From assembly GCA_014871385.1 (NCBI GenBank), contig CM026427.1, forward strand, positions 10,044,430-10,108,429: 64,000 bases of DNA, given 5' to 3'. How positions within the stretch are numbered: the first letter of the stretch is position 1; every line of letters starts with the position of its first letter. The translations under genes were made by a program, and so were the position numbers. Shown here one piece after another: positions 16,497 through 63,131 of this stretch. The notes under the pieces were generated by a model, which had not been told where the DNA came from, did not search any database, and saw only the letters and a list, made by a program, of their open reading frames with translations. The DNA is from Ceratodon purpureus (lineage: Eukaryota > Streptophyta > Bryopsida > Pseudoditrichales > Ditrichaceae).

Positions 16497-16646
16497 AATA
16501 CCCATGCGATACTTAGGTGATATAATCTCCATACCCGTACTATACTCGGGTGATATCATCTCCATACCCGTAAGATACTTGGGTGATATTACCGAGATAC
16601 CCTTATGATACTTCGTTGATATATGAAATACCCGTTTGATACTCGG
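16497..16646. repeat. 11-bp-period array, copy 1 (13-14 units)
   Basis: The sequence divides into consecutive 11-mers: GATACTTAGGT (16508), GATATAATCTC, CATACCCGTAC, TATACTCGGGT, GATATCATCTC, CATACCCGTAA, GATACTTGGGT and so on, to about 16646. Most units carry GATA(C/T) at the start. Units also resemble each other every third one, giving a 33-bp higher order. It is the reverse-strand form of the arrays at 43399 and 49674. Because 33 bp is 11 codons, both strands stay open and yield a periodic peptide (ISPxYxTGMEx), which I take as a by-product. Confidence 0.8.
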
Positions 16647-18003
16647 GCCGCGCTGTGCTAAAGGCACTCTCTGTTCCTGTGAATGCAGAAAGCAAGGTCT
16701 ATGCATGAATCAGTTTTCATTCAAAGACTAATATTATGAGTATGAAGCACACAAATTACAGAATACAATTCACACAACAATTTTTTTATCAAAACTTCTT
16801 TGAAAAAAGACAGCAATTACAGATTGCACACAAAATGACTTATCCCCAAAGATTCGAGATTCGCCACCTCTGAAAATCATTCAAAAGCTTGTCAATACTT
16901 CTTTCTCCAAGCCACAGTGACTTCGGCATTTTTTGACATGTTATTATACACCATTCAAGACCAATATTCGTTGACATTCTAAAAAGCCAACAATGTACAT
17001 GCTTCAGAAAACATAAAAAAATAAGGAAACTAGAAACATATTCCACAGAAAAACAATTATGCAAACATAAAAAATAAGGAACCTACAAACATATTTTACA
17101 GAAAATCAATCATACACACTTGTAAAGAGTTCTATTATCAGAACGCTTGTCTCTCAGCTCTCAACAGGCAAGTTTTCCCGGAGCCCAGATGTACCGAGAA
17201 GACTTGGTTCCAGACACGGATCGACCGCCACTGCACCGAATTTCCAATTATAAAACTACACAGGAGCAACTGATTGACACAATCAAGGATGCTTTTGAAT
17301 CGATGATCACATCAGACTGATTTCTTCTCCCTTGGGCTTTTTTTTCCCCACTGTTATTGCACAAAGCAAACAGTGTGGATCTCGTCTGTGAACAAGCACT
17401 TCCTCGATCTCCATCGCCATGGCAGTGGACTGAGTGTGTCATATATATGATGCCGGTGCATCTGTACTCTGACACACATTGCAATTCCCACCTTCACAAC
17501 TGTACCTCCGGCTAGCTAGCTAGGAGCCTACGTTGGAGTGTCAGTTTTTTCTGAAGCTTCTGTGATCTGTGATGCGTTGACATGTTGCTTGAAATCAGTT
17601 TTTTAAGTCTAGATCAAGGTTTTGAGAACGTGGGTAGTGGACATCGGTCATTTTATACTCCTCTTTCTTCTGCATTGTCTCTGTTTTGCTAGATAACTGT
17701 ATCACTTCATTGGAGATGTGAAATTAATCATGTCCGTGTTGAGGCTTTTGGTACATTTTTTATCTGTAGATGTTCAGTGTGTTGCTGATGTGAGTGAGTG
17801 ATTCAAGCATTGTGAGCTGAGCTGTGACTAGTTTTGAAGGTGCTACATCCCAGTTTTTTGCTTTGTTATAAGGTTGTAGCATTGTGGTATTTCTTTGAGG
17901 TTTTGAGGACTCGTTCCGTGGTGTGGAGAGTGGAGTTCCAGATTCTGCTGAGTTGCGGGGTTTGAGTTGATAAGGTTCATTTTTTGGGAGTTTTTAGGAG
18001 TCG
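16647..18003. other. Intergenic/promoter DNA of the 18004 gene
   Basis: A-rich around 16760-17100, then GT-rich 17530-18000, which looks like 5'UTR or promoter of the following gene. No other gene seen. Confidence 0.4.
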
Positions 18004-18462
18004 ATGGAAGTCTGTAAGAGCAAGCCTGCTCCGATCGACCTCACACTGTGCATAAGCAATGGCGCTAGAAGCCCGACGAGTGAGATCACGGGTGACTCGT
18101 TTCCGCCACGCGAGGAGTACGGTGCAAAGGACGGATCAAGCGACACAGCAGAGTATGCGGAGAAGGTGGAGGCAATGCTGAGCACGGCGATAATGCAGCA
18201 GGAGGACATCTGGAACTTGCTCATGCTGAGCGTCTCCGAGGGCCTGGCTTACCATCCCGACTCGGACGGCATGTCCACGGTCGCGAAAATCTCCCCCGAG
18301 TATTTTTTCACTATGAAAGGCAAGTTAGAAAACTCCATCAACTGGTGTTCGTTAGCTCAAAGCCGGCTGAAGCGCATCATTTCCCCCGACCCTAAGCGGC
18401 TCACGCCATCACTGCAGAAATATCGACCTAGAATTGTTGATGAGAGCGAATTGAATTGTTGA
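18004..18462 (+). CDS. Small stand-alone WRKY N-terminal-domain protein, 152 aa
   Basis: A single-exon frame from ATG 18004 to TGA 18462. Residues ~1-47 are a polar leader that includes IDLTLCIS, loosely like an EAR-type LxLxL repressor motif but not matching it exactly. Residues ~48-126 are the same domain as in 13730 and 33512: EYAEKVEAMLSTAI, QEDIWNLL, then KLENSINWCSLAQSRLKRI. A basic tail of about 25 residues follows. There is no WRKY heptad or zinc finger in or just after the gene. It is closer to the 13730 protein (identical EKVEAMLSTAI) than to the full WRKY protein, so the two small genes probably arose by duplication of one another. The role is unknown; interference with WRKY dimerisation is an inference. 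Confidence 0.7.
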   Translation: MEVCKSKPAPIDLTLCISNGARSPTSEITGDSFPPREEYGAKDGSSDTAEYAEKVEAMLSTAIMQQEDIWNLLMLSVSEGLAYHPDSDGMSTVAKISPEYFFTMKGKLENSINWCSLAQSRLKRIISPDPKRLTPSLQKYRPRIVDESELNC

Positions 18463-20233
18463 ATTTTTTTTGGGGATGATTGCGACAAGCGTGTGCAATG
18501 CTGACGGCTTCGAGAGAGAACTGACAATGTGACCGATTGGCAATCACGCTTGATGGCCATCACTTTCGGTGCTGTATCACCACCTTCATGTTCAGTACAA
18601 TGAGTAGAATCTAATAGGTCAAATCAGGAAACTAGAAGTAGCATAAACTCTGCCATATTCAGCAGATGCTATCTATGGTTTTCACGCAGATCGGGTACAC
18701 ATGAAGATGGAAGGTTAGACAAGGACCAAGAAAGTGCTGCTTCATCAGTTTTGGTTGCCATTCAACAGCTGTTCTCTCTCCTGCTGTCTTGCTGATGGGA
18801 GTATATAAAAAGATTTATGTGGATACATTGACAGAGTAATAGTGATAGGTAGTTTCCATTGAAATAACAATTTGGTCCCAAACGGAGGTTTCTTTGCTTC
18901 TCAAGACGCGATGCTGGCTTGAGACAAATGTAGAGATGCCTTGGAATTAAATCCTGTTGACAGTTCACCCTGATGTTAGAATGCTGTGCACTCAAGTTGT
19001 TCTGCAGAGATGAAATTGTATGATTGGAAACTTAAGAAAGAAATGCTTTCGTTTCAGTGCCTGAATGTCACACTTGGGCACAATGTCAGCAGACTGCATT
19101 GTACACTTTCGTCGATCTCTTGCCGTATCTTTCAACATTTGCAAACAGAATACGGTTCTCTGCTCTAATGCGTGAATGGGCAGTACAACGTTTTCAGTCT
19201 GCTCGTACCCATTGTCCACTTCTGTGAAATCAAGTAGCAGTATAGTTTGCTTTAGGACACACATGATGTACGTTCCTTCGATCGTCCAGGCACATGGAAG
19301 GAAATGCCACTGAGAGTCGAAATGTAACTTCTTCCAGGTTGGAAATCTCGTCACTCATTGGCTGACTCCACACATCCGAAACAAGTGACCCATGTGCACT
19401 CTTCGGAAAATTCTGCCATCATCATAGATTGGTTCGAACTTCGCAGAAGTGTAAACTTCACAAAAAAGGCTTGATAGAATCATGGTTTAAATCAATGCTT
19501 CGTCACATTCTGCAAAAACAGGAACGTTACTATGCACAATTGAAATAGAGCACCTTCCGAACGTCACTGCTCTACCAGTCAATGCAAGGAACGACGTGAC
19601 AGCTATATCTTCAGAGTGATGTCAATTTGACGTGATTGCATAGATCATGAGACAATCAGGCAGACTCGGCGAGTCCAAAGACTGTTGAAAGAACAACAAT
19701 CAAGAACTAATCAACTTAGAAAACTTCATTGCATGTGAATTGACCAAAAAATTGAAGAGGCTACTATTATTCTGTATCAAATTGAGGATTACAGTAAATG
19801 AATATTGTTTACAATCGAATTAAGGGCTGGTAGCTCCTCTCTATTGCAATATAGGAAGAGATAAATGATCGTTATGTGCTATATTTTCGTCATAATCAAT
19901 TTCAAAAAAAGGCACAAGAATTTCTAAACTCTTCTCAGATTGGTCCCAAGTCACCTCCTAAAGAACACTTCCGAATCTGCATCCAAAAATGATCTCTCAT
20001 CATAATCTACCCTTTCGCAAGCTTCAGACAATCTAACCTCTAGAGCTAGAAGATACACAGTTGGGCTCTGCTCAAATGGATAAAAGAACTTCATAACATG
20101 AAAACGAAACCTGAAAGAAACCTCCCACCCTTCCACAGGCCAAGAATACTTTCCAAGTCTTCATCACAGTCGCTCCTAGCAAATCCAGATGAACGACTGA
20201 AGATGTCCATGCATTCTCCAACGCCTTCTTCCT
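18463..20233. other. Intergenic DNA, no gene seen
   Basis: Short shadow frames only. The interval lies between the stop of the 18004 gene and the 3' end of the minus-strand 60-aa gene, so it must hold both 3'UTRs. Confidence 0.5.
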
Positions 20234-20416
20234 TCATTGTTGGTCGACCTTCTTCTTCGGCGTCGCCGTGGCTGCAGCAGTAGCTGCTGCCATAGCAGCT
20301 CCTACCGCACCCATCTTCACACCCCCCGCTGCCTTGAACAAGGTCGCCATCTTGGCAGCAGCTGCCACCCCGGCCGCAGCTGCCGCTCGCAACACCACCG
20401 TCGGCTTCACCCCCAT
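20234..20416 (-). CDS. 60-aa Ala-rich protein with Lys-rich tail, unrecognised
   Basis: ATG at 20416, stop at 20234. The product is strongly Ala/Gly/Val-rich and weakly hydrophobic (VVLRAAAAAGVAAAAKMATL, then GAVGAAMAAATAAATA) and ends TPKKKVDQQ. This could be a small organellar or membrane-associated protein. The transcript model is supported by a good upstream splice pair: donor CACA|GTAAGC at 21338/21337 and acceptor TTTTGCAG|AATTG with exon start at 20446, 30 nt before the ATG. This puts a ~0.9-kb intron in the 5'UTR. A longer overlapping frame (20444-20091) is Cys/Gly-rich and is probably a shadow, but I cannot exclude it. No family recognised. Confidence 0.45.
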   Translation of the reverse strand: MGVKPTVVLRAAAAAGVAAAAKMATLFKAAGGVKMGAVGAAMAAATAAATATPKKKVDQQ

Positions 20417-20446
20417 TGCAAAACCGCCGATGAAACCCCTTCAATT

Positions 20447-21574
20447 CTGCAAAATCAGCGGAACACTCTCAATAACATCTTCCAACAGCAATCACACACC
20501 AACTCATAAAAACAAAAAAAAAAAACACTTCGAAGAGTCAGTTATCTGATCATCCTCACATCAACCGCCACCATCATCAACCAACCATTCACCTGCATTC
20601 TCACAACTACTCACTTCACGTGAACCCATGTTCCACCTCAAACTGGTTCCCTTATCCCCGCTAATTCACATGCAAGCAGAACGACCCCATCGAGTGAATC
20701 CACCAACCATCCAAAACAAAACCAATTCACCTCTCTCCTCACCAAACCCTAATTTCCATCTCTGCCATACAAGGATCAAAATGAAAAGAAATCACATGAA
20801 AATACTTTCCACCTGAAATTCTCTCCTCTACCATGGAACGATTCACATGAAACCAAAGACCTAACCGTCGAACGAATCCACAAATCTAACTAGTGGGTGT
20901 CAATAGCTTGGATCACCTCACTAAAAACCGGCAAATTCCATCACCCATCTCAAGACCAAGAAAATGGTACTGTAAATAAATAAATGTATCACCCAGTTTC
21001 TCCACCTTTGTAGAATTCACCAAAATCCTCCCCCAAACCATCCAACACCCACTATTGTAAACCCAATTGAAACCCCAAATTCTCCTCACAAAACCTCAGA
21101 AGAAGAATACATGTGCTCTAGAAACGAAGTAAATGAGCTTCGTTCCACCTGAATTGTGTGCTCACCTACGGAACGACTCACATGGGAACAGAGATGGAAC
21201 CGTCGAGTGAATCCACAAAGTTCGTGATTGCGAAACCAATTGCCTCAAACCCTAATGTGATCAAACCTCGGATTCTAGACAGAAAGTTGTTGTGGCTTAT
21301 TGTTGGAAGATGGGAGAGGAAGGTGAGGTTAGCTTACTGTGCGAGAGGAGCTTGGCAGCCGGGGTGACGGGATCGGAGAGTGGAGCACAATGGCTTGGAG
21401 AAGAGTGTGGCCAGAGCACAATGTGTTGGGATTGCAAACGGTGGTGTCTACGTTTCACCTGAATCAGTGTTGGAGCGAGTCTGGGATCTCGGGAGGGATA
21501 TTCGCGTGGGATTCCTTTTCGAATGTTTAGAGTGTTCCTTTAACTTTTTGGAGCTCATGTGTGAAGTTGCTTAG
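20447..21574 (-). other. 5'UTR exon and intron of the 20416 gene
   Basis: On the minus strand a non-coding exon ends at 21338 with CACA|GTAAGC. The intron down to 20447 is G/T-rich on the transcribed strand, like the first introns of other genes here (1-370, 56-57 kb). Plus-strand frames in it are shadows. Confidence 0.4.
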
Positions 21575-22574
21575 GGTGTTTAGGGTGTTTGAATGTCTTG
21601 AGGTTTCCATGGTAGGGTGCATGTGTGTGCGCTTGCCTTGGTTATGTAGGTTATGTTGGTTGTGTTCAAATTGAGTCTACTCATGTATGATAATTCGACA
21701 ATGTATCTTAAATGGCTGCGGAGGCGCTTTAATGGTTTAATCCTTGTTACTATATGATAAAGAAATTATAAAGGATTGACAGTTAATTCTTTCTAATTTT
21801 GTAGTAGCCTACCATTGAAATAGATAAGTATTTGGCCTTAAATTATTATTTTTTGGATAATGATACCACACAATCCGCTTCTGGCATTTGTTTTTGATTT
21901 TTATGTGAAATAGTTAATGAGCCCCTTATTGATGTAAGATTAATTCTACTAATTGTTTTGTTGAATGACAAAGTTAATGGAGGCAACAATATCTAAAAGT
22001 ATTTTATCATTTTTCAAATAGTTGAATAAATCGTGCAAGGTCCATTTTGAAACATATTTAGTAAAGTTATAGGTTAACAACAATTACAATGTTAAATTGA
22101 TATCGTAGCAAATTTTATTGTTTATAGTTGAAAATATTAAAATTAAATCATCAATATTTTTTTTGAAAATTATCTTTGATAAAAGTAAAAACATGTTTGA
22201 CATGTTTTGTTTTCCATTATTTGATTATGCTTAGACTTTACAACAATGGTATATGTGGAAGGATGGGACTAATATTTACAATTGGGTTATAGACTAGACT
22301 TTAATTTCTGAAGAAAAATGTTGTGATATACAAATGTAGTGAGATTCAAAACTTGAAACAAGTTTAGAATGAAAGATTTGGGATTCATTCCACAGGTACA
22401 AATTGTACCTTTTTCTTAGATGAGATGATTGTGAGTGATGTACCATTTTTGAACTAAGGGCGTTGTAAGTGAGTTAAAGTTCAACGTTTTCGTTGTTAAA
22501 CCAAAAGGAATGGTCATGTTCTACAAAAGAGCAATGATAATAAGAAGAATACTAAAGTCCATAAACAATTATCT
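21575..22574. other. AT-rich intergenic DNA
   Basis: No open frame or repeat of note; A/T-rich throughout. Confidence 0.5.
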
Positions 22575-23155
22575 GTTAGCTAATGGAAGTGTACCAATTT
22601 TTACAGCCTTTAATAATAATTCCCACTTTTGTATGCAGTGTACTCAATGACTCATAAGTTTGTTGGGTAATGGATGTGTACCAAGATTTACAGCTTGTAA
22701 TTATAATTTCCACTCTTGTATGTGGTGTCACTGAATGACTTGAGTTTGCTGGTTAATGGATGTGTACTAATATCGCAGCCAGTAATCATAATTTCCACTC
22801 TTGCATGCAATGTCACTAAATGACTTGGGTTTGCTGGCTAATGGATGTGTACCAAGTATTATAGCCTGTAATCATAATTCCCACTCTTGCATTAGCTATC
22901 ACAAATGACTCTTAAATGACTCAAGTTGGCTGGCTGATAAGTGTGTACGAACATTTACAGCCAGTTTTGATAATTCCCACTCTTGCATGTGGTGTCACTG
23001 AATCACTCAAGTTTATTGGCTAATAGATGTGTACCAACATTTACAGCCACTCTTACATGTGGTATCATTAATGACTCAAGTTTACTGGCTAATAGATGTG
23101 TACTGAGTTTTATAGCTAGTAATCATAATTCTCACACTTGCCTGTGGTGCAACAT
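22575..23155. repeat. Degenerate minisatellite, seven ~70-96-bp units
   Basis: Seven successive units each contain CTAATGGATGTGTACC (or close), TTTACAGCC, AATCATAATT, CCCACTCTTGCATGTGGTGTC and AATGACTCAAGTTTGCTGG. Unit length is mostly 84-96 bp; the sixth is shortened by an internal deletion. Units differ by about 10-25 per cent by eye, so the array is old. The frame at 22983-23207 lies within it. Confidence 0.85.
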
Positions 23156-24640
23156 GTTAAAGTTTTTAATATTGATGACAAATTATCATAAATTGATTAT
23201 TAACTAACATCAATTAATTGCTAAAAAACATATATTCCTATTCAAAATTTAAATTTAACCAATTAAAAAGTAGAAATTGCAAAAAGCTTAAAAGTTAATT
23301 CATGTTTTTCTTGTTTACATGTCATTTTTTTGGAAATAAAAAACGAATATATTATCATGTCAATACATTAATACATTAATACATTATAGAAAATGATATA
23401 ATATTCTAAGTTCCAAATCATTCTAAACTTATACTATTTTAATATTTATGAATTTAAATAACCATATATAGGAAAATCCTAGCTATATATTAAAATCATT
23501 GCAGATGAGACCATCTCTATACAAAAGCAATTAAATTCTCCTAAACTTAATAAGTATAGTGATAGACAATGCTTATACATTTTCTATAGATTTATATTTA
23601 CTTCTTTATTGCCATATATAACTATTCTACAACAATGGTCCTATACGTGCTTTTAACAAATTTCTAATCACTATTAATTTATTTATTTATTTAGTTCTAC
23701 CTTCAATTAGGAATTGTTATTGGCAAAAATTTGAAAGTGAAGGCAGACTTAGTGTTTATTTCTAGAATGTTATGCATTCACCATTTTTGTTTCATACTTA
23801 AATAATAAAAAATACAAAATTCAATATTGAGAGGAAACTTGAACAAAGACAATAAGCTTTAGCAATTCCAAAAAAAGCTAATTTTTTCTAGATTGCTACT
23901 AAAACAATGAGGTTGCTAAACTTGCGAAAGAAAAAAAATGAAAAAGTAATAAATTTTAGCCAAAATTTACAAGTATGTAGCAACTTCATGATATGATTTC
24001 CATAATATCATTATAATATCACTTTAATATCTCAAGAATATTGCAAGAGATCTTACGGTCGTAGTGTGTAATGTATGCACAAGGTAGCAAACAAAATAAA
24101 CATTTATATGGGAGGTAAACATCGTGCACTAAATATCATAAAATGGTTATGGGATAATCGGCAAGCTCGACCCGGCCATCGTTCATCAAAGGACAGAACG
24201 AAGACGAATGTCGTCCACATTAGCATGTCCTATGCAAGACGACATTCATCCACATAAAGCCACCACGTGGCACAGAACATTCGAAGTCTGAAATCATCAG
24301 ATATGGATGAGAAATATCAGCAGAAAACATCCATTACCCCATGCACGCCTTTCGGGCGTCAGTTGCCGTAGACGAGAATCGTCGATTTCAAAGAACAGCA
24401 ACTATAGAAGATCATCCAGACGTCGCAACCCGCCCACTCATTAAGAAGGTTCCCGCCCCCGCGCATGGATGAAGTTAGAGCGGAAACAGGAAACTTAAAT
24501 TCGCGCGCTCCCCTGCCCTTTCCCAAGGATGCATACCCAAAAACCGCCATCTACCAAATCGTAGATGCAAGAGGCTGAAATGTACGGAAGAATCTGCCAC
24601 TTGTTGGCCTATGGTGCTGTGGCGGCTTAGGGTATACGTC
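23156..24640. other. AT-rich intergenic DNA, then promoter of the HMGB gene
   Basis: Very AT-rich up to ~24050, no gene. From ~24150 composition rises to near 50 per cent GC towards the 5'UTR exon of the HMGB gene. Confidence 0.5.
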
Positions 24641-25506
24641 TCGGGCTCTTGTTCCTTGAGCGCCTCGAAGTGAGCGTCAGTGACCATTTGCTTTCTTCGT
24701 TTTTTACTGGAGCTAGCGTGCTGTTGTCTCCTATACGCCCGCTTCCACGCCGCAGTTCCTTCACGTTTCTGCGTCCGCTGCTCTCAGCGCTTCTCGGTGA
24801 GTACAATTTTGCTCCAGGAAACTTTTGGTTAATGTTTTTCTCGTTTTTTTGCTTGCTGATTGATGCAATTTGGAGTTAGCATTGATATCTCGTGAACTGT
24901 TAGTTCTGTCAGTGTCTTTATTGATCTGCATTCTTCTTGCTTATCGAATTGTAGCTTGAGGTTGTTTTCTTGCTCGGGGAAATCATTCTTGCTCGTTGAG
25001 GCGTTCGTTGATGTTTGATGCGATTTGGAGTTGGCATTGAGGTCGATTGAACTGTTAGTTCTGTTCGTTTTTTCGTACATTCGCGGTGCTGCATTGAATT
25101 GCAGCCAGGAGCATGCGTGGTGTTCTATTTTATGTTTTTGCTCGTTGAGCTGTGCGTTGATATTTGCTGCAATTTGGAGTCGGCATTAAGAATTCTTGAA
25201 AGTCTGTTAGTTCTGACTGTCGTTTTGCTCTACATTCGCTGTGTTCTGTTCGTACATTGAATCGTAGCCAGAAGGAGCCAGGGGCTGTGACATTGTAGGT
25301 TCGCGCTTTCTGCCCATAGCGATCATGGATTGTGTCGCCTCTGAGACTGAAATTTCAGCATGCGCTCATTTGAGTTTGATTAGGCCGTCTGCGTGATATG
25401 TAAGATTAATGTGAATGATTTTAATGATATGCGGTAGTAATTTTGGTTGTTGCTTACGGTTTGAGCCCCCGGTATTTTAGCCATCTTAGCGCCCGAGACT
25501 CAACAG
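24641..25506 (+). other. Likely 5'UTR exon and 5'UTR intron of the HMGB gene
   Basis: A donor TCTCG|GTGAGT at 24796/24797 and an acceptor CTCAACAG|GAGG at 25506/25507, 13 nt before the ATG at 25520, suggest a leader intron of ~710 bp. Inside the intron a ~120-bp motif (GTTGATG..TGATGCAATTTGGAGTTGGCATTG..CTGTTAGTTCTG) occurs three times at 24860, 25010 and 25150. The transcription start is not fixed. Confidence 0.45.
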
Positions 25507-25519
25507 GAGGCTTCCGACG

Positions 25520-27461
25520 ATGCGAGGTTTAGACTCGGCCTCGTCGAAAAAGCAAACCAATATGCATGGCGCATGGAAACGGGTCTATGTCGACCCGAGC
25601 GAGGTGCAGCGCAACGCTAGCGAAAGCGATGTTGCACTCTGGTAATTTCATCATCGCCTTGTGCGCGGAAGCTTGAGGGAAGTTTATTTGTATACACAGA
25701 GGTTTGTCTAAATTTGGTTCCTTATAATCTATTAAGAACATTCTGCTTCTTTTTTCGTGCAGCGAGAAGGACAATCCTACAGCGACTGTTGGCCACATTG
25801 TGCCCCGTTGCGACCGTAAGAAGGAGGCAAAGTCTAAGAAGATTAAGATCAGCACAGAGTGTAAGTGAAAGTTCTGATGACGCTTCTTTCAGTATTTAGA
25901 GAATCTCAATCGTCAACAGTCACAGTATAAACAGCTCTTTCTATTCTTTTATCGGTATATTTTAATTGAAGTGGAAGAGTCTTGATGCAAAACTTCTGTC
26001 TGTGCGTGTGCGGCAGCAAAGATGAAGAATGACGCTGTGAGGAGCGATGACACAATGTACAGCCTCTCGTTCCTCTGGTTACGTAGATTCCGTTTTATTG
26101 TTCTCTTGAAATATAAAATTCTTTTTCAAATACAGGATAGGCCATTTTTGTTCCTGCTTGCTTTTGAAGGCAACCCCTTTTATTAAGATCATGCAACGCT
26201 GGTCCACCTCTCTGTTAAGATCATTGCAGGTCACATTATTTCTTTTAGTTCTGTGCTGTCGATTATCATTATGTATTTGAAATGTTCCTGCCGTTGTAAT
26301 CGGATATTGATTTGTTCTCTTCGACTAGCGTAAGCTTGATGTGGACATCGGCAGATCATTTCCGGTCAGCTTCAGCGTGATATTGAATGTGCAGAAAGGG
26401 GGCGAAGCGCAAGACCGAGTCGAAAGCCAAAGGCGCTACGAAGCAGGCGAAGAAAGCTAAGGGAAAGGATCCTAATGCGCCAAAGCGGCCAGCATCGGGT
26501 TTCTTGATCTTCATGTGAGTCTTTGTCTGTCTGTTTTCTATTGCTGCACGTGATTTCTCGTTTCTGCAAGTCCTTCAATAAGTTCTGCAGGCAGATTACA
26601 ACATTTGTACCGGTCAACTTGAAATTATCTTGTACTATTATGTTTTGAAACCTCAATGTTGTATTTGCTTCTTAATCTCTGAAGGGAAACTTTCCGGAAG
26701 ACTTATAAGGAAGCTAATCCAGAATCAAAAGGTGTGGCGGCGGTGAGTAATCTTCATACCTTCAATCAGTCCGTCGAGTTTGTCATTTAGCAAGCTGTGT
26801 CTGGCTTTGAAAGTACGTCGAAGGTAAGTACTCCTTGAATGCATGTCGTCGCGCACGGCTCATTGCTAACATACTTTACATGGACGATGCAGGCTGCAAA
26901 AGCGGGTGGTGAAAAGTGGAAGCAGATGTCTGAGGAGGTCAGTTTCGAAGCATAACCTAATATGAGAAGTAATTTAACATCTACTTAAACACGTGTTATG
27001 AAGTCTCTATGTATCTAGTTTCTGACCTCTATTCGTTGTGGCCGCAGGAGAAAGCACCATACAATAAAGATGCTGGAGCTAGAAAGGCTACCTATGAGCA
27101 GGCCTTGACGAAGTACAGAAACGGCGATTCCTCAAAGGTTGACAATACTTGACAGCCCGCTGAACTTCCATCGCTTAGCATGAACGCTTGCGTCTGCATT
27201 GTTACTTCATGGCATGACTCTAATGCCAAGAAAAATTGGCTGCCTGACAGGATGACGGGGGAGAGGTGTCCGAAGCTGCTGCGGAAGATGAAGAGGTATT
27301 TGCTCTATCTTGGTGAAAGTAACAGGTGCAAATCACAACTGGAAGTTTATTGGTCTCCTTACTGCTTGGCCCTTGACTTCTAATGCATTGGCTGGTCGCT
27401 GGTATAAGTTTACCTTCTGAAACGCCTCATTTTATTTTGTCAGGAAGTTGAAGAGGAGTAA
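25520..27461 (+). CDS. HMGB-type high-mobility-group chromatin protein (one HMG box, acidic tail)
   Basis: Nine coding exons by splice sites and phase: 25520-25641, 25763-25860, 26017-26056, 26395-26514, 26685-26742, 26893-26937, 27048-27137, 27251-27295, 27444-27461; 211 residues. A Lys-rich segment (KAKGATKQAKKAKGK) leads into the box at about 112-185: DPNAPKRPASGFLIFM, KTYKEANPESKGVA, GGEKWKQMSEEEKAPY. The tail is acidic (DDGGEVSEAAAEDEEEVEEE), encoded by the last two tiny exons. HMGB proteins bind and bend DNA in chromatin without strict sequence preference. The acidic tail and basic N-flank are typical of plant HMGBs. The first ~87 residues do not resemble plant HMGBs I know, so the first three exons are less sure. 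Read-through of the exon 7 donor gives a product ending VDNT without the acidic tail, a possible second isoform. Confidence 0.85.
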
Positions 27462-29789: not shown

Positions 29790-29792
29790 GGT

Positions 29793-40711: not shown

Positions 40712-43398
40712 GGCTTCAAATCAAGCAAGTCTTAATGCTGGTAGTGCACTTAATAAATTCATCTAAAGGAAGTTACACTGCTCAGTAGGACTTCACCCAC
40801 GACACAGCATCGAATTGCAAGAACTTGGAATCAATGCTGCAACCGAACACAAAAAACTGTAGCAATTTCAGGAATAATTAACTGAGTCGGTAGAAGAAAA
40901 TTTGGTCAAGTTGCAAAAAATAATTATGAGGAGTTGTAAAAAGCTAACCTTGATGCATCAACAACAAATGTCTAAAGAATTACACACTAATGACAAGTCA
41001 AAAGGATCATATAGACTAATCTGAATCCCAGAACTCACCATGCTCCGAAGTTGAACCGAGGACAAACCAAGCCTGACTCCGATAAGTGAAGTGGGATATA
41101 CACAAGTCGACTACGACAACAACAGTGAGGTCATGTGTTGATACTACGTGCTCAGAGGCCTGAAGTGAAAGAGACGTAGAGTGAAGTAGAGAGGACTGAT
41201 CATTGCTCCCGCCGCAAGTGCAAACACAGTGAAACAACTCACAGCCTCGTCTAAGTAAGACTCTGCCAGCCGAACCCTAAGCATCACCCAAGATGGTCAC
41301 ACTGTTCATCCAGATACTCAGGTCCGGAGCCTCAGATTGGTGCAGACACTCAAGCTCGGCGGATCAGACTGGTTTTTGTCGGTAAACATTGAGACAAGAT
41401 ATCTTCATCGTGCTAATCGAGCGCTCAGAACCCTGAAATGCCAAAGATCCGACAGCTTCGATACAGTCTGCAGGAAGAGAGAATGCTTTGCTAGCCGGAT
41501 CACGATGGCCCGTCCTCTTGCCCTGAAACCGGGAACTTAGAAACATGCGGAAACTATTGCGGCAAGATGAAGGTCCAGCACGTAGAACGAAGTAGAGAAG
41601 ACACATCATAACTTTCGCAAGTGCAAACACAGTGAATCAACCCACAGTTGGTGACGAGCCTCGTTGCAGGTGGCTCTGGTCTGCTGGTCGAACCTTAGTA
41701 TCACCGGGATGGTCGCACTGTTGTTCCGTGTATTCTGTTCTAAAGAGTCGGATAAGGACTTATGATCAACAATCACCGTAGCGTCTGGAGTAATGAAGCT
41801 TCTGTAGCTCATCGTTGTTTCGCATGATATGAATCCTAGATTGCTTTGTTCTGTGACAGAAATGACGGCATTTTGTTCCGACTCCTTCGCGCTCCTAATT
41901 CGCCCCGCCAACTTCTAACTTCATCTCTGAAGAAAACAGTCATCGTAATCCTAGTTCCCAAGGGAGCCAGGCCGTGCCAAGTTCCGACCATTCTCTCTTG
42001 CCGACGTTATTTTTGAGTATCGTTTGGATTGGCTAATTGCCAGTGTTACCACTGAAATTTGGAGGTTTTTTGTCCTATAACATTTCCAAAGCAAACTTCT
42101 TTCAGTAAGGGCAACTAACACCACTGCATAGTTCTGACAGAATGCATTCGCTCCTCTCAGCACCCATGAATGAAAACAATTATGGTGCGCATTGCCAAAG
42201 ATTTCAGAATTGCATATCTGTCATTAGCGTTTGGGAACTAGCTAGTGCATACACAATAATTGTTATCTGTTCATGTGACTGAACATCTAACCCTTCGGTG
42301 TGAAGGATAAATATTCAGAGTTCACCCTTCACTATGGACTTCTCGTTGGCACCAAATTGAAGAATTGCTAAACTACGAATTCTTAAATAACAATTCAACC
42401 TACAATAAAATCAGCGCCTATATTACAATCATCTCTGCTATTCTGTCAAGAATTTCAATAAGCAAGCTAAGGACTCTCCGAACACATGTCATCCTTGTGC
42501 AGCTCCAGCATCCGCTTTGTTAGTTTGTGAAGCCCTGTCATCATACAATACAAACTATTACAACACAGATATGTAGATATGCAGTGCGTTGCTATGAATC
42601 GTAAGAGACTAGAAATGGATAAAAAGAAAATGCATTAGAGTTAGATAATTGAGCACGTGTAGAAATTGCACAACCTGAAGCAAAAGCAGTCACAAAGTTT
42701 ACTGTTCCCTATCAATCGTTTGGGCAACTCCGAAATCAAGTTCAACCTGTCAACATAGCTCTTTCAACACATTGGTATGCACTGCCAAAAGTCCAGGAAC
42801 ATTTTGGGAGATTCCGAACAGCTACTGACGTGGGTCCACACTTGAATATCACGATAGTTTTCATGAACCGCGTCCATGCCTAACATCGATATTGCTCCTA
42901 GTGATAACATCTTCATTGGTGAACTTCCGATACATATCTGTAAACAAGGAAACAACAATCATAATATAAAAATATGAGTTAGTCTCGAGCAATCCAGTAT
43001 ACATATATGTTCAATGTATATTAGATGTTCCAGGTAATTCTTTCCTACAGTATGCAACTAAAATTGATAGGCAATTACACATTAACAAAATATACATAAT
43101 GAAAGTACTATGGCTTTTCAAAGTTCTCCAATGGTTGATAAAATTTTCATGCATAGAAATTCCATGTTAAATGAAAAAATAGACTTGATAATCATCGTAT
43201 AAAAAGATCAAACAGGACATTTAAATACGCTCAAATCATATATAGAATTGTATCATATGATAGAAGAAGCTATTTATTTTGAAAAAGAAATGTAGTAGTG
43301 GAACGTGATCTCCTCCAAAGCTCTTCTTCCAAAGTGAAGGCGCAATCAGAAACGCTTATTAGGTGTCGCATTCTCCAAGTCGTCCAGTCCACGTCCTC
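40712..43398. other. Upstream region of the TNL, no other gene supported
   Basis: Includes an imperfect direct repeat (see 41175-41740). The frame at 41606-41911 (minus) is open over 100 codons but overlaps the repeat and shows no domain. 42700-43270 is AT-rich. Confidence 0.45.
41175..41740. repeat. Imperfect direct duplication, ~140-bp units ~410 bp apart
   Basis: Unit 1 (~41175-41325) and unit 2 (~41585-41740) share GAAGTAGAGA, GCAAGTGCAAACACAGTGAA, CAAC(T/C)CACAG, CGAACC(C)TTAGTATCACC and GATGGTC(A/G)CACTGTT in the same order. They lie 0.5-1 kb upstream of the TNL first coding exon, perhaps in its promoter or leader. Confidence 0.7.
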
Positions 43399-43497
43399 AG
43401 TATCACGCGGGTATAACCCAGACATTACACCACTATAACAAGAGTATCTCCCGAATATCACCCTAGTATCTACCGAATATCACCCGCGTATCACCTG
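43399..43497. repeat. 11-bp-period array, copy 2 (9 units)
   Basis: Nine consecutive 11-mers with no slippage: AGTATCACGCG, GGTATAACCCA, GACATTACACC, ACTATAACAAG, AGTATCTCCCG, AATATCACCCT, AGTATCTACCG, AATATCACCCG, CGTATCACCTG. The consensus is close to AGTATCACCCG. It ends 842 bp before the OTU gene start. Confidence 0.85.
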
Positions 43498-43655
43498 GAC
43501 ATGAACTGCACACATTGAACTCCTTGGGTGCTGCGTTGCAACCAATGCCGCACTCTGGTGCAAACAATCTGTCAACAACCACCAGCAACAGCAACACACA
43601 CCAGATTAGACTCATTCCACCACTCTCATGACCAGTCCAAGGCACTGTAGTCTAC

Positions 43656-43699
43656 AATCTCACACCAGGATCACTCCAGTATCACTCCAGTATCACACT
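43656..43699. repeat. 11-bp-period array, copy 3 (4 units)
   Basis: Units AATCTCACACC, AGGATCACTCC, AGTATCACTCC, AGTATCACACT, in the same strand sense as the array at 43399 and 160 bp from it. The DNA between them is not periodic, so it is a separate short array. Confidence 0.75.
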
Positions 43700-44338
43700 G
43701 GTGCATGGGATGCAAGGGAGTACACAGCACAAGCACAGCAATCCAGCACAAGAAACGCCACACATCAGTTGGGTCATGTTCATGAGCAATTCAGCTTCGG
43801 TGATCAGCTGGGATGGCGGATTCTGATTTTAGAGCGGATTGATTTAGGTTGTGTTGAGTTTGGGTTTTGGGTTAAGTTGGGTTTTTGAGGAATGTGGGGA
43901 ATTTGGGTTTTGTTTCTGGATGATTGAATGCTGGCCTCGTGGGGTGGTGGATTAGGGAGCTGGATGCGATCAGGGGAGAGCCTGCCGGTTGGGTTTAGTT
44001 TGGGTTTTGGGTTTAGGGTTTAGGGTTTTGGAGGATTTGATTGTGAGCATGAGATTTGGGTTTTGGAGATTTGTGCACTTGGAGTGTGTTTGGTGATCGG
44101 ATTTGGAATGGTTGAAGTACTTGGGGAAGAGGTTTAGATTGGGTGTTTTGGGAGTGAAGGTAATTGCGACCGTGAGATTATTTATGTGGGACAATTCCAT
44201 TGAGGAATTTGGGAGAAATTGGAGGAGACCCATTTAGGATGCTCTGGCATTAGAAGCTCGTTTCCTGGGTAACATAATTTTTGGTGCTAGTGACGAACGG
44301 GATATCGTTGGAAGTATAAGACAGGCATTCGATCGGCT
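43700..44338 (+). promoter_or_regulatory. Promoter/leader of the OTU gene with telobox-like TTTAGGG repeats
   Basis: A T/G-rich block at 43850-44110 includes GGGTTTAGGGTTTAGGGTTTT at 44010-44030 (given here as the TTTAGGG unit repeated), the plant telomere unit. The reverse complement AAACCCTAA is the telobox found near start sites of many plant housekeeping genes. No TATA box was assigned. Confidence 0.4.
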
Positions 44339-47170
44339 ATGGGTCAGAAACGTCCACCTCTGAAGCTGAAAGTTATCCGAAATAAGGTATTCTGTTTCTG
44401 TTTTATCTTTTCAAACGTGTATGTTTTGAATTGATATTCTACGAATTTGGGAGCAATTTGTGTACGTATGTTTGTGGACCTGCGGTTTCTTAGAGGTACC
44501 TGTTTCAATCTGTGTTCTATATTAAATCGTGGCTCTCGTGATCAGGATAAAACGAAGGAGATTGCAAGTCTTAACCAGCAATTGGGGTTGTTGGATCTTA
44601 AAGTAGTTCAAGTTACAGCTGATGGCAACTGTTTTTTCAGGTACATGTTACGTGTAGTTGATTCAAGAGTTCTTAGTTATTGTATGCTGGTATGCAGAAC
44701 GACGTTAACATTGATTAAGTTTAGGTACTTAACGATACGGAGTATGTCTTTTTGACAGAGCTGTTTCGGAACAGTTAGAGGGTGACGAGGAGGAGCATTC
44801 TAAGTACCGGAAAATGGTTGTGGATTACTTACAGGTGGGAATCCTTAGTCTCTTACTCTGGCTGCCTTGTCAGATGTTGTGTTTTGCACGCATGAGAATT
44901 AGCCTTTTTATTATGTTGTTTTATATGATAAGCACATTAGTTTATGCAAATGGTTATGAGCTATTGAGCTATGATAGACCTTAGCATTTTAATGACTATC
45001 AAATTTTATAATCGCTCTGGCTGGTCTTGATGTCTGGAGTCGTTGTATAGTACAAGTCTAATCTAGTGTGCCACAATTTCTCAAATACAGGAACACCGAG
45101 AAGATTTTGAGCCATTTGTGGAGGATGAAGTTCCATTTGATGACTACTTGAAGAATATGCGAGAAGAAACTACATGGGCAGGCCACATGGAGATTCAAGC
45201 CACATCACTAGTCACCCGTACTAATATCTGTATCCATCAGGTATATGGTTCATCTTGGAATGAATCTTGTATGGTTATTGTTTGCATATTTATTGTGAAT
45301 CTAGAGACTCACATGCTTTAAAAAATGTCTTCTCATAATCTGTTTTCATTAGTTATATATAGAAAGATGCATATATAATAATGGCTGCTGTTCATAGAAG
45401 AATTACAATTGGACGATTTGTTTGCAGCTGAAGACACCCAGGTGGCATTTTCGGAATTTCAACACCGCAGATGCGAAAACTATTCACCTGTATGTTATCA
45501 TTCTGATTGTTCATTATTATGTTCTTAAAATATTTTAATATTTTTTATTTTTGTGAGAAGAAATATTCAAGCATATCCTAGGGCACATTCTGCATATATA
45601 CTTGGCAAGTTGATCAGTCTGAAAGCTGCGAGTCTTTGTATTGAGTTCCTTATTGTGAAAATGTTCTGGTGGCAGGTCGTATCACGATGGTGAGCATTAC
45701 AACAGTGTGCGGAGACAGGATGACCCTGGAGATGGCCCAGCTAAACCTATCATTATTGAGGTAAGAAGACGATAATTATAGTTCAAACTTGAAGATTCGA
45801 TAGGGTATTCGGGATGGTTTCTTAAGGTTTCATTTGTTCCGTAGTGATCTCATAGTGATAAATGATTTGTGATCAATTCTAATTTTATCTTTGCATTGCA
45901 TATTTCACCTTTGATCACAAATAAGCTCGTGGCTAACACTTTCGTGTTTAAAGGGTGATGCTACTCCTGCCACTAAGCCACCACCAACTAAGTCACTTGT
46001 AAAAGACAAGAGTAGGGATGTGGAGGCAGCAGCTATCAAAAGAGTTATGGGAGGTAGTGGCTGTACAAATGAGACTCGAGCAAGAGAAGTAAGTAAAAGT
46101 AAACTGTACCAACATATATTTGTCACCATAGATATTCATGTAGAAGTGCAATTTTATCAGAAGTAGTTCATATCAGAAGGCCGTTTCAATGCACATGTAT
46201 TTTTTTTGCTTTGAAGGTCTTTTCCTTAAGTCAAAAATGTCTGCAGGTTTTGCGTGACGTGCATGGTGACGCTGATGCTGCTATAGAGTACTTAATTGCA
46301 GAATTAGCCAGCGGTGATGCTAGCTCCACCGGCTCAGACGAAAGTGATCCTGGCTCTTCAGCAGCCACCGGTCCGTGTTCCTCTTCCCCCAGTCATGTAT
46401 TCTTTCGTAATGCATATTTAAAATTTAAAACCTTAGAACCTTGGCTGCAAACAGTTATTGCATCTGCAGTCACAAACACATGCTGATCACAGTTGGAAAC
46501 AGCACTTTTCATATTGAAGTATTTTGATTGGGGTCTAAATATTGTCTAGGACCGAACAGGTGATCAAAGTAGAGTCTCTGAAAAATCGACATCCGATGAA
46601 AGGACTGAATCGAAAAGATCGTTAATCTCTTGCACTGCCAGTGAGAATGGAGGAGGGAATGCCAATTCAAACGGCTTGTCTGCATCTTCTCAGGTGCCGT
46701 TTCATTCTACTTCATATTGCTTTTAGTTTGCCAAGACTTCGTTGTGTGCATTGTTGTCAACTGGGAAAATGTAAGTTGAGACTGACGTGGATGTCGCATT
46801 ATGGCAGAGTGTGGATCGGAACAAACCATGCCCTTGTGGCTCCAAAAGAAAGTACAAGTCTTGCTGTGGCACCTCAAAAACTCGGATAACTCCAACTCAC
46901 TTGTCCAGGTTTGCCATCCGAACTTCATCCCATTGATTTCATTTAGTCACCAGTGGAAGGTCGTGGATTTTGTTATTAGAAGTAGTGAGTGTTTGGGTTC
47001 ATGTTTGGTTGAAGTGGGTTTTTGGTGGTGTTTTTGGGTGAAGTGCGGAAGAGAACCTTTCAAACAAAGTTCGAAAACAAAAGCAGAAGATTAGTAAAGG
47101 CCACCACACAGGTGACGACGAAGTCTCTCGTGCACCCGTCAACTTTGACATGGGAGCTCTTTGCCTTTAA
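44339..47170 (+). CDS. OTU-family deubiquitinase with UBA and SEC-C motifs (plant OTU7/OTUD3 type)
   Basis: Eleven exons in phase: 44339-44386, 44546-44640, 44759-44834, 45091-45240, 45428-45489, 45676-45760, 45954-46088, 46247-46370, 46560-46693, 46808-46908, 47044-47170; 378 residues. The OTU catalytic core has DGNCFFRA (Asp, Cys nucleophile) at ~42-49, an ATSL..TNICIHQ strand, and SYHDGEHYNSV with the catalytic His at ~146. A UBA-like helix bundle follows (AAAIKRVM then VLRDVHGDADAAIEYLIAEL). A SEC-C zinc motif (PCPCGSKRKYKSCCG) is next. The end DMGALCL closely matches the conserved end of plant homologs as I recall them. The enzyme should cleave ubiquitin chains; plant members act in nucleus and cytosol. 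Joints at exons 8-9 (G|GTCCGT donor) and 10-11 are the least certain but give the known domain order. Confidence 0.9.
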
Positions 47171-47892
47171 CGGATTTTGTCACAGTTTGGTCGCAGTTTT
47201 GACACAATTTTTTCTCGATTTTCCACATTCATGTGTATTAATCCAGGATTTAGTTTCAGTTGGTGTTCGTTCCCTGCATAGCGAGAGATCTACTGAATTC
47301 AGATTCGCGAGCCATTTTTTATTGCCATTGTTGGCAGTTATTATACCACCGGGAGACCTCCGGGTACAGTCGGGTTAGTAGGATTAACGTACTGGACACT
47401 ATTTCTGTTAGTTTAGGCCATGGAGCATACTTGCAAAGAACGGTTTCTTTTAAAATATCCATAGATAGAACTGTGAGTGAGAAGCTTAAATCTATTTTTA
47501 AATCCGAAAAGGACTTATTCTGAATTTTCTATGAATTTTTGAAATATAGTTTTATAGATCCCCGTATTTGTTAGTAGATTCATCCATTCTCATGCACATG
47601 TCATCTAAGTTTGACCACAGAGGAACCACTTTTAGGCCTCTTGGGACTTGAAGGATTATGCATGGATGTGGATTGGGGACTACCTAAACATATGAAAAAG
47701 ATGCTTTTACACATACATATAGTTTTAGAGGCTAACATATAGAGCATAAGCTTAATATATTAGTGAATCAAGGGCAATTGCTTTAATCCCAGCAGCGCTC
47801 TCCAAAATTTTCATTATACAAAGTGTCCAGCTCCATTCTGTACAATTACAATGATCCTACCAACATGTACACTCTGAATCAGAACCCATTGT
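47171..47892. other. Convergent 3' spacer between OTU and LEA genes
   Basis: Holds the OTU 3'UTR on the plus strand and the LEA 3'UTR on the minus strand. No gene. A 47440-47610 segment resembles 59220-59420: AGAACTG/AGAACATC..GAAGCTTAAATCT then TTTGTTAGTAGATT and CATGCRCA (weak, dispersed repeat). Confidence 0.45.
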
Positions 47893-48991
47893 TTACAGAC
47901 GGTCGGCTGTCTCCTTCGCATCCTTCTTCACATCCTCGGCAGAATTCTGCACTGCTCCAGTTCCATAATCGAAGTTCTGCTGGACATTGCCAATCGCATT
48001 GCCTGCAGCGTTGCTTGCCTTCTCCTGCAGCAGAGTAACCATCCTCACAGTGAATACAAAATCTGACAATAAATGATACACAAAGCTTTCTCTACTTAAT
48101 TAACTGGTTAGTAATGGGTTCAGAAATCGTGGTTAGATCATAGTACGGTAATCAGTTTCTATACTGTTCAATACTTACTATGTTGCACAAAACTTGCTAT
48201 GAACATCAGCTAGGTTACTCCCCAGTAAATGGGACATGTATCTAGATGCTCATACGGAAATATTCATTACTTCGGCAATCTAATGCTTGCCAAAATGGGA
48301 TTTGGAGTTTCGAAACACACTACGTATTCATTTTTAGAGATATTCATGTTTAGAGATTACTTCCTAAACTGCCAAAGTTTGAAGAAACTGCCAATCTAGT
48401 GAATAACTCCATTCATGAGGCTCTGGAATCAGACTTGTTAGGGCATTCTGCTGTTGATCGACAACAAATGACGAGAATGAAGTTCTGGAATTGTTGGCAA
48501 ATAGCTTGGAGATTAGGATTTACCAGCACGTTCTGGCCATCGCTGAAATCGGTGGCGGCCTCCAAGGTGTCGCTGGTCGAGGTTTTCACTTCGTCACCAA
48601 CTTCCTGAGCCTTGACGCCACCTTCGTCGACCTTCCCAGCAGCCGCGTCGATAGCCTCTTGGGTCTTGGCGGCCATATCCCGGCCGACGTCCTTCACGGT
48701 GTCCTGTACCTCGCCGATCTTCTCAGACACTAGGTTGCCGAAGTTTCCCGCGTTCTGGCTGGCGTCGGATTTCACTCCGTCAAAGAACTTGTCGATTCTC
48801 TCAGGGTTGCCTGCAGCGCGGACAAGAGCGCTGCTCCTAGCTGGCCGGGCGGTGGTGATGGTGTTGCCCTTCGTCAGGCGCATGGGTCCGAACTGGACGG
48901 CGCTTGAGCTCAGGGTTCTTGCATTTGGAGTGCTTGTCAAGTTAGCAGTCTGCATCACTGCTGCAGCGTTCACGGTCGCCATAGCTGCCAT
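47893..48991 (-). CDS. Chloroplast-targeted LEA-like stress protein
   Basis: Two exons: 48991-48524 (GTGCTG|GTAAAT) and 48024-47893 (CTGCAG|GAGAAG), phase 0, giving 199 residues. The first ~60 residues are Ala/Ser/Thr/Arg-rich with almost no acidic residue and end at SALVRAA, a chloroplast transit peptide with a VRA-type cleavage site. The mature part is very hydrophilic, Lys/Asp/Ala-rich and predicted helical with LEA group 3/4-like stretches (EKIGEVQDTVKDVGRDMAAK, TQEAIDAAAGKVDEGG, EKASNAAGNAIGNVQQNF). Such proteins protect membranes and enzymes during drying, fitting a desiccation-prone moss. An 11-bp-period array lies ~0.7 kb upstream. The ATG at 48991 is followed by a second at 48982; either works. 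Confidence 0.8.
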
Positions 48992-49600
48992 TGTTTAAGT
49001 AAACCCCAAAAAAACGAATAATCTGCATCAAACGACAAAACCCAGATCAAGTAAGTTCTCATCTCGCTAAACGTTCAGAAAATTCTCCATGTACAGCACA
49101 TTCATGCAAACTCCAAAAACCATGTCTCACTTTCACTGCATGGTGAACACTCCAAATTTTCTTATTTTCTCATACATCCGAAGACTACCCAGATACAGAA
49201 TGTAGAAACTAACGACATCGAAGCAGTCACAGCAACCACTCACCTATCCTAACATTCGCAAGATACATATATAGTGGCAGAAAAAAAAGACGAAACGGTA
49301 GAACTTCAGTTAATTCAACTTAAGACTACAAAAACTGATCCTACATTATCCTCTATGGATGGCATTCCCAACATGGTGACTCTCATGACATGAAGAGCGG
49401 AACTTACACATGCACCGAATGCAAAAAGATCCGACAACATACCTGAAATATGGTTATGAGCTAGGATCAAATTCAAAAAAAATCTCCACGCAAATGCACA
49501 AGGTTGAGATCGAATTGCAGTGCTCAGGATGACAAGAGCGCATGCAGGCAATATATTGGGCAGGAATTGGGGACAACGGAGACGTGGGCGAACGATGGGA
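48992..49600. other. Promoter side of the LEA gene
   Basis: No gene seen. C/A-rich around 49020-49260 on the plus strand. The frames at 49315-49866 are shadows of the 11-bp array and its flanking repeats. Confidence 0.45.
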
Positions 49601-49601
49601 T

Positions 49602-49868
49602 TTCCAAGTGGCCGGAGAATGCAAAAGTGCAGTGGTGTGGTGTTGGTGCATGGCAGCCCCACGAAAACCGCTGGAGTATCGCTCGAGTATCGCTCGAGTA
49701 TCGAAGTGATATCGCCGCAGTATTGTCCGAGTATGCCCCGAGTATCACCTCGATGGAGTATGGTCCAAAAGTGGGTTTTGGAAAGAAAAGGGAACTGTTT
49801 GTTTCCAAGTGGCTGGAGACGGGAGAAGTGTCGTGGTGTGCAGCAGTGGTGTATGTGCATGGCCACCC
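49602..49868. repeat. 11-bp-period array, copy 4, between ~60-bp direct repeats
   Basis: The core, 49674-49761, is eight 11-mers: GAGTATCGCTC twice, GAGTATCGAAG, TGATATCGCCG, CAGTATTGTCC, GAGTATGCCCC, GAGTATCACCT, CGATGGAGTAT. On either side lies an imperfect direct repeat: TTTCCAAGTGGCCGGAGAA.. to GTGCATGGCAGCCCCA (49601-49661) and TTTCCAAGTGGCTGGAGAC.. to GTGCATGGCCACCC (49802-49868). Both contain GTG-rich text (AGTGGTGT). This is the most complete copy and may show the true unit of the element. Confidence 0.85.

Positions 49869-63094: not shown

Positions 63095-63131
<37 letters not shown>

What the first reader, a model, noticed from the sequence alone, without database searches (positions are those of the whole stretch)
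16497..49868. Dispersed arrays with an exact 11-bp period (core AGTATCACCCG)
Four arrays (16497-16646, 43399-43497, 43656-43699, 49674-49761) break cleanly into 11-mers around AGTATC, despite being otherwise diverged. The phase holds while the letters change, which ordinary satellite decay does not favour. Three of the four sit 0.7-1.5 kb upstream of a gene start (18004, OTU, LEA). Eleven base pairs is close to one DNA turn, so identical contacts would face the same side. Possible readings: protein-binding ladder, nucleosome-positioning DNA, or the core of a small mobile repeat.
Basis: partly seen in the sequence, partly recalled or inferred. Interest (0 to 1): 0.85.

Follow-up and report, generated by a model that had tools for sequence, protein, structure and literature searches.

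The report
Eleven-base promoter ladders in a moss
A moss-like genome carries hundreds of short DNA ladders that repeat the site TGATAC every 11 bases with changing letters in between; many sit in gene-start-like regions and others ride inside two families of small jumping genes, which suggests a binding platform for an unknown protein.

Summary
The four arrays are 11-bp ladders of GATAC (other strand GTATC); of nine periods tested only 11 scores in the window. Genome-wide the strict ladder has 364+325 hits, against 88+16 for the reversed pattern and 19+17 at 10-bp spacing. The host is a 362-Mb genome with one 110.5-Mb contig, which fits the moss Ceratodon purpureus (inferred).

I classified 63 ladder loci. 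Two classes are old hAT-like MITEs: A (27 loci, ~230 bp) and B (8, ~310 bp), with inverted ends and 8-bp target duplications in part of the copies. Class C ladders sit near a flip of strand skew from C/A-rich to G/T-rich (25 of 29 positive, p=1e-4). Unselected Ras-family genes often show that flip upstream of their coding match, so I read it as the transcription start. Spacers are unrelated between arrays while the core is kept.

Best reading: helically phased binding-site ladders in a minority of promoters, shared with (or seeded by) hAT MITEs. Binding is not shown. Nucleosome positioning is unsupported; the mobile-repeat reading holds for A and B only.

The parts
16497..16622 (+). Ladder of 12 units, GATAC on + strand, about 1.4 kb upstream of the ORF at 18004; class C by flanks, but no skew flip at this array
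   Evidence: flank search: besides itself one 200-bp match (95%, C13) that ends before the array
43400..43492 (-). Ladder of 9 units, GATAC on - strand, upstream of the OTU gene; class C
   Evidence: besides itself one 97-bp match (75%) covering only the array, at C2:23.92 Mb, which is a ladder
43657..43694 (-). Second ladder of 4 units in the same upstream region
49676..49746 (-). Ladder of 7 units, GATAC on - strand, about 0.7 kb upstream of the LEA-like ORF (-); class C
   Evidence: no other match in the genome
49601..49663 (+). Left copy of a direct repeat (72% over 71 aligned columns) that flanks the 49676 ladder; right copy at 49802-49872
49802..49872 (+). Right copy of the same direct repeat
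23850..24170 (-). Copy of the class B hAT-like MITE (query used); holds the ladder 24005-24042
24005..24042 (-). Ladder of 4 units inside the class B MITE
574..833 (+). Second class B copy with a decayed ladder (696-722)
45067..45318 (+). OTU-domain exon downstream of the 43.4-43.7 kb ladders
   Evidence: Pfam PF02338 E 1.5e-9
48413..48991 (-).
18004..18462 (+). ORF downstream of the 16497 ladder; 450 bp of G/T-rich sequence precede its ATG; no Pfam hit

Best explanation
The ladders are homotypic arrays of one recognition site, TGATACY, set one DNA turn apart (11 bp) so that all copies face one side of the helix. Most likely a sequence-specific protein with a short site binds them side by side and opens or marks the promoter; spacer letters do not matter, so they drift and are now and then homogenised by local duplication. 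Two old hAT-like MITE families carry the same ladder inside and may have spread it or captured it. Shown: the ladders, the exact spacing, the MITE structure, the skew position, spacer independence. Inferred: that the flip is the transcription start, that a protein binds, and that binding is selected.
For: Spacing: 364+325 genome hits at 11 bp, control 88+16; 19+17 at 10 bp, control 14+20. At 12 bp 141+63, control 273+42; most of the first 100 rows listed are (GATATA)n runs. Extended consensus ladder 106+97, control 3+0. Core versus spacer in 30 class C arrays (191 units): core identity 0.81 within and 0.80 between arrays; spacer 0.45 within and 0.35 between, 0.35 being expected from column composition. 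Position: skew jump +0.41 mean in 29 class C loci, 25 positive (p=1e-4); all window positions 0.00, positions in 18 Ras loci 0.00, class A -0.08 (26 loci), class B +0.09 (8 loci); 0 of 20,000 random sets reach it against either background. Against positions of GC 0.42 or more, p=4e-8, rough because these positions overlap. The strongest jump within 900 bp lies within 300 bp of the array in 14 of 17 loci with long flanks, 5.7 expected. By eye about 15 of 24 Ras-family loci show a like flip upstream of the coding match. Families over their cut-off near class C ladders: mitochondrial carrier, subtilase, amine oxidase (3 of 10 ORFs), OTU and DUF2045 (2 of 10 ORFs). The three window regions are single-copy.
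Against: Loci were chosen by a perfect GATAY core, which inflates core conservation; in the next, unchosen unit (27 loci) the commonest base reaches 0.52-0.78 in core columns and 0.37-0.70 in spacer columns, a milder contrast. Ladders are absent from all 24 unselected Ras loci (79.6 kb), so this is no general promoter element. Four of 29 class C loci have no positive jump, the window's 16497 array among them, and in 5 of 17 long-flank loci the jump at the array centre itself is zero or below. About 9 of 24 Ras loci do not clearly show the negative-to-positive change. At L080 the one gene-like hit (plastocyanin-like, under cut-off) lies on the upstream side of the ladder. Orientation to the gene is not fixed: 7 same, 3 opposite among ten starts read by eye. 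Spacers are somewhat more alike within than between arrays, as local slippage would give. Unit order scored slightly above permutations (2.50 v 2.43; 1 of 100 reach it), so weak common descent is not excluded. No expression, chromatin or binding data and no second species were available.
Confidence: 0.5

Rival explanations
1. All ladders descend from hAT-like transposons: the ladder is the transposase-binding region, and class C ladders are remnants of elements that inserted in open promoter chromatin and whose ends have decayed.
For: Two separate MITE families with hAT-type ends hold the ladder. Class A: 8-bp target duplications with at most one mismatch in 8 of the 15 loci whose ends are clear, among 27 examined. 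Class B: exact 8-bp duplications in 2 of 12 loci, L110 and L114. A hAT transposase binds a short subterminal motif (Herves, PMC3143072, abstract and passages). hAT transposase genes are abundant here: 150 of 874 candidates scored, 150 matches. One class C locus, L050, shows an exact 8-bp duplication with ends differing at 4 of 14.
Against: A scan for inverted ends plus 8-bp duplication gave a row in only 3 of 29 class C regions (L050, L065, the 16497 array), each with ends differing at 4 of 14; chance was not computed. Flanks of the three window regions are single-copy. Class C spacers are unrelated between arrays. Class A insertions do not sit at the skew flip. End-side pieces of two hAT transposase genes hold no ladder of three or more units, but their true ends were not found.
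Confidence: 0.25
2. Neutral minisatellite: an 11-mer that arose by slippage, multiplies easily in promoter DNA and has no function.
For: Some arrays are homogeneous (L025, L045, L054, L062), and ladders inside class A copies grow from about 4 to 9-11 units (L002, L073). Spacers are more alike within arrays than between.
Against: Independent slippage would not produce the same heptamer at unrelated loci with unrelated spacers and a fixed 11-bp step.
Confidence: 0.2
3. Structural DNA signal: nucleosome positioning, or a replication origin, since origins also show an upward skew jump.
For: The skew pattern of an origin is similar in shape (recall); the period is near one helical turn.
Against: The step is 11 bp, with 10-bp spacing at background; the flip is about 1 kb in scale and a like flip is seen at gene loci without ladders.
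Confidence: 0.05

Closest known systems
Homotypic clusters of transcription-factor sites
   Same: Several copies of one short site in a promoter-like region, core kept, spacers free
   Different: Spacing is a fixed 11 bp over 3-14 units and the same ladder is inside two MITE families; no factor is known
hAT-superfamily MITEs; hAT transposases bind short subterminal motifs
   Same: Classes A and B: inverted ends beginning CA-TG, 8-bp duplications in part of the copies, tens of copies, too short to code for a transposase
   Different: The repeated motif is a phased ladder in the interior; no autonomous partner was linked; class C shows no such marks except three weak rows among 29 regions
GARP-family sites (for example LUX, GATWCG)
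   Same: Share the GATAC core (motif from recall; papers holding GATWCG with LUX ARRHYTHMO seen only as a search listing)
   Different: Here the site is TGATACY, mostly C or T and not G after GATAC, and it is arrayed
Minisatellites
   Same: Head-to-tail units, some local homogenisation
   Different: Spacers unrelated across loci while the core is shared

Membership tests
hAT-like MITE (class A) | Terminal inverted repeats of hAT type | tested here: met
   Ends close to CAATGTTTGGGAAG and CAATGATCGGGGAG in 15 of 27 loci at up to 6 mismatches; 12 of 27 unclear; alignment of 8 loci. That such ends are hAT-type is from recall
hAT-like MITE (class A) | 8-bp target-site duplication | tested here: met
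   At most 1 mismatch in 8 of 15 loci with clear ends (two of the eight, L066 and L067, are near-duplicates); the other 7 differ at 2-7 bases
hAT-like MITE (class A) | Multicopy and dispersed | tested here: met
   41 matches from 40 scored of 208 candidates, over contigs C1-C13
hAT-like MITE (class B) | Inverted ends plus 8-bp duplication | tested here: met
   2 of 12 loci with exact duplication and ends differing at 2 of 14; not seen in the other 10; 47 matches from 40 scored of 92 candidates
hAT-like MITE (A, B) | Autonomous element with the same ends | tested here: inconclusive
   Ends of two hAT genes not located in the pieces fetched
   Rows in 3 of 29 regions, ends 4 of 14 different; flanks single-copy in the three window regions searched; no shared flanks among class C loci by the 100-bp criterion, L007 and L045 set aside
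Homotypic binding-site cluster | Repeated site kept while spacers vary | tested here: met
   milder in units not used for selection
Homotypic binding-site cluster | Located in promoters | tested here: met
   By proxy only: skew flip and some nearby genes
Homotypic binding-site cluster | Bound by a factor and affects expression | not testable with these tools
   No expression or binding data held
Minisatellite | Tandem units of one sequence | tested here: inconclusive
   Tandem yes; units alike only in some arrays
Nucleosome-positioning DNA | About 10-bp dinucleotide period | tested here: not met
   Only the GATAY core was tested: 10-bp spacing at background

The most novel reading that the evidence does not exclude
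A host protein, possibly a domesticated hAT transposase, polymerises along TGATACY ladders with one subunit per DNA turn and defines a class of divergent promoters in this moss; the same ladder in two hAT-like MITE families shows where the platform came from, or that MITEs mimic it.
Probability: 0.15. Interest if true: 0.85.

Novelty: new variant of a known kind. Interest (0 to 1): 0.58.

Why it matters
If the ladder is a binding platform, it is a promoter element with an unusually strict geometry that can be found by sequence alone, and it links promoter architecture to two transposon families in one genome. About 450 strict ladders (extrapolated: 689 hits at 100 listed rows per 66 clusters) give a ready list for DAP-seq or footprinting. 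Even if it proves neutral, classes A and B are two hAT-like MITE families of this genome, and the skew flip is a possible mark of gene starts in it.

Tried and rejected
Ordered common ancestor for class C: not supported as the main origin; top ten pair scores as in permutations, mean slightly above (1 of 100 reach it). Shared flank motifs of class C: none beyond shuffles that I would defend. Transposon ends around class C: rows in 3 of 29 regions (a first scan of part of the loci was). Fixed orientation to the gene: 7 to 3, not significant. Ladders as a general promoter element: rejected, 0 of 24 Ras loci. In those loci even periods 8 to 16 did give 8 to 17 hits at the lowest threshold and period 9 gave 2; by the scoring a TA-dinucleotide run would do that, but I did not look at the cause (a check for three GATA-type strings found none). 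Autonomous hAT with ladder ends: inconclusive. Literature: no paper on 11-bp promoter repeats in moss (one unrelated paper) nor on GATAC repeats in moss promoters (two unrelated papers). Searches were seen as listings with starts of abstracts; passages were seen in PMC8000587 and PMC3143072.

Rows dropped or moved: one search listed 100 of 689 hits, which I grouped by hand into 66 clusters (C1 and the first half of C2); 60 were fetched. Not fetched for the classification: C1:17158380, C1:19998603, C2:3357093 (fetched later as L117), C2:8044997, C2:12762598, C2:13218405. With L001-L003 this makes 63 loci: A 27, B 8, C 27, one unclassified (L028). L007 and L045 were linked to A by the automatic grouping but moved to C by eye, as the likeness is the ladder; L038 was added to B by eye. 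L007 is left out of the skew and core tests, and the near-duplicate L067 out of the class A skew test. Six of 24 Ras loci were left out of the position background as overlapping. A 215-bp length for class A in my notes is replaced by about 230 bp (211-286 bp in the 15 loci with clear ends).
Full report
What was claimed and what is there. The four arrays exist at the coordinates given and are periodic at 11 bp far beyond shuffles. A comb scan at nine periods finds arrays only at 11. There is a fifth ladder at 24005-24042. Positions 7 and 8 of the unit hold about 0.1 bit, 9 and 10 about 0.25, the core 0.9-1.7 bits (the core was part of the selection).

Host. The window lies on contig C7 of a 362.5-Mb genome in 151 contigs; C6 is 110,524,308 bases long, and the nine other lengths that tools showed run from 16.7 to 29.0 Mb. 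A review gives Ceratodon purpureus a genome of 360 Mb with U and V chromosomes each above 100 Mb (PMC8000587, passages). I infer this moss or a close relative; it is not proven.

Genome-wide. The strict three-step ladder has 364 forward and 325 reverse hits; the same pattern read backwards gives 88 and 16. With 10-bp steps there are 19 and 17, control 14 and 20. With 12-bp steps there are 141 and 63, control 273 and 42; most of the first 100 rows listed are (GATATA)n runs. The extended consensus has 106 and 97, control 3 and 0. The 100 rows listed fall into 66 clusters, so 689 hits mean roughly 450 ladders (extrapolated). The window, with 9 strict hits in four of its five ladders, is an outlier.

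Three settings. I compared 63 ladder loci (60 of the 66 clusters, plus L001-L003) by flank similarity, with three assignments changed by eye. Class A, 27 loci, is a repeat of about 230 bp with ends close to CAATGTTTGGGAAG / CAATGATCGGGGAG. In the 15 loci whose ends are clear, 8 have an 8-bp target duplication with at most one mismatch and 7 do not; in 12 loci the ends are unclear. A genome search lists 41 matches from 40 scored of 208 candidates, 77-85% alike apart from the query itself. Its ladder has about 4 units and has grown to 9-11 in L002 and L073. Class B, 8 loci and two copies in the window, is about 310 bp with ends CAGTGRTCCCARAA, exact 8-bp duplications at L110 and L114 (2 of 12 scanned), and some copies are palindromes (L106, L108, L109). 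By these marks both are hAT-like MITEs; no autonomous partner was tied to them. Class C, 27 loci with L007, has flanks unlike each other. A scan of 29 class C regions for inverted ends plus 8-bp duplications gives rows in three, all weak.

Where class C sits. Oriented by the GATAC strand, flanks of 29 class C loci (26 plus three window regions) are C- and A-rich before the ladder and G- and T-rich after it, out to about 1 kb. The jump averages +0.41, positive in 25 of 29 (p=1e-4); window positions and positions in 18 Ras loci average 0.00, class A -0.08, class B +0.09; 0 of 20,000 random sets reach it against either background. Because an upward flip looks the same from both strands, this says nothing about orientation. 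In 14 of 17 loci with long flanks the strongest flip within 900 bp lies within 300 bp of the ladder, 5.7 expected; at the array centre itself 5 of 17 have no positive jump, so the ladder is near the flip rather than exactly on it. To learn what the flip means I took 24 loci of Ras-family matches, not chosen for ladders and partly overlapping: by eye about 15 go from negative to positive on the upstream side of the coding match, the others are unclear or lack the negative part. I therefore read the flip as the transcription start with divergent initiation. None of these 24 loci holds a ladder, so ladders mark a minority of promoters. Named families over cut-off near class C ladders: mitochondrial carrier (L075), subtilase (L078), amine oxidase (L081), OTU (window) and DUF2045 (L077); 15 of the 20 ORFs sent to Pfam had no hit over cut-off. 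Of ten loci where I could read a nearby gene start by eye, seven have GATAC on the gene's strand (L025, L074, L075, L078, L079, and the window arrays at 16497 and 49676) and three do not (L027, L081, and the 43.4-kb arrays).

Core against spacer. In 30 class C arrays (191 units) the core is as alike between arrays (0.80) as within (0.81); spacers are 0.45 alike within and 0.35 between, the latter equal to chance from column composition. In the next unit, which was not selected, core columns agree at 0.52-0.78 and spacer columns at 0.37-0.70, so the contrast is weaker there. Unit order is not clearly shared between arrays. This argues against class C as decayed copies of one element and for a site that is kept while its surroundings drift, with some local duplication.

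Mechanism. I put most weight on a protein that recognises TGATACY and binds side by side along one face of the helix at a subset of promoters. The hAT-derived reading is the main rival: a hAT transposase binds a short subterminal motif (PMC3143072, abstract and passages), and a ladder inside two hAT-like MITE families would fit a transposase platform, later used by the host. A neutral minisatellite explains the homogeneous arrays but not the common heptamer at unrelated places. The GATAC core is also part of GARP-type sites such as LUX's GATWCG (recall; listing only), which gives a candidate family, no more.

Limits. No second species, no expression, no chromatin, and a cap on genome letters that stopped an unbiased genome sample. 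The transcription-start reading is a proxy. Searches of the paper library found nothing on such ladders in mosses, within that library and those terms only.

Noticed in passing
L082-L105 and window gene starts: Stretches upstream of coding sequence are often strongly G- and T-rich, with the opposite skew further upstream. A study of GC skew at plant gene starts (PMC555766, start of abstract only) measures skew as (C-G)/(C+G); from recall Arabidopsis is C-rich there, the other way round.
   Followed up: partly
L106, L108, L109: Class B MITE copies folded into palindromes of about 560-600 bp, 75-85% self-complementary.
   Followed up: partly
Genome: Many hAT transposase matches share the same 1032-residue open frame with equal or near-equal scores on many contigs, with many hits on the 110-Mb contig C6: looks like a recent burst.
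   Followed up: no
loci L005, L021: A class A subfamily with the unit series CCTACAT, CCTAGGT, CCCATGT, CTTAGGT recurs almost unchanged on several contigs including C6, so it probably moved more recently.
   Followed up: no
C2:3377694-3377950 and C6:30903297-30903349: A few ladders of the same GATAC core with a 12-bp step.
   Followed up: no
window 49601-49663 and 49802-49872: A direct repeat of about 70 bp flanks the 49676 ladder on both sides.
   Followed up: partly
window 60497-60798 and 62810-63214: G-rich and C-rich minisatellites with units of about 22-25 bp around AGCTTCT / AGAAGCT, about 2 kb apart.
   Followed up: no
window 16252-16451: 200 bp just before the 16497 ladder is duplicated at 95% on C13.
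   Followed up: no
L050 (C1:23241433): Class C ladder inside an exact 8-bp duplication with weak inverted ends (4 of 14 differ); a possible insertion.
   Followed up: no
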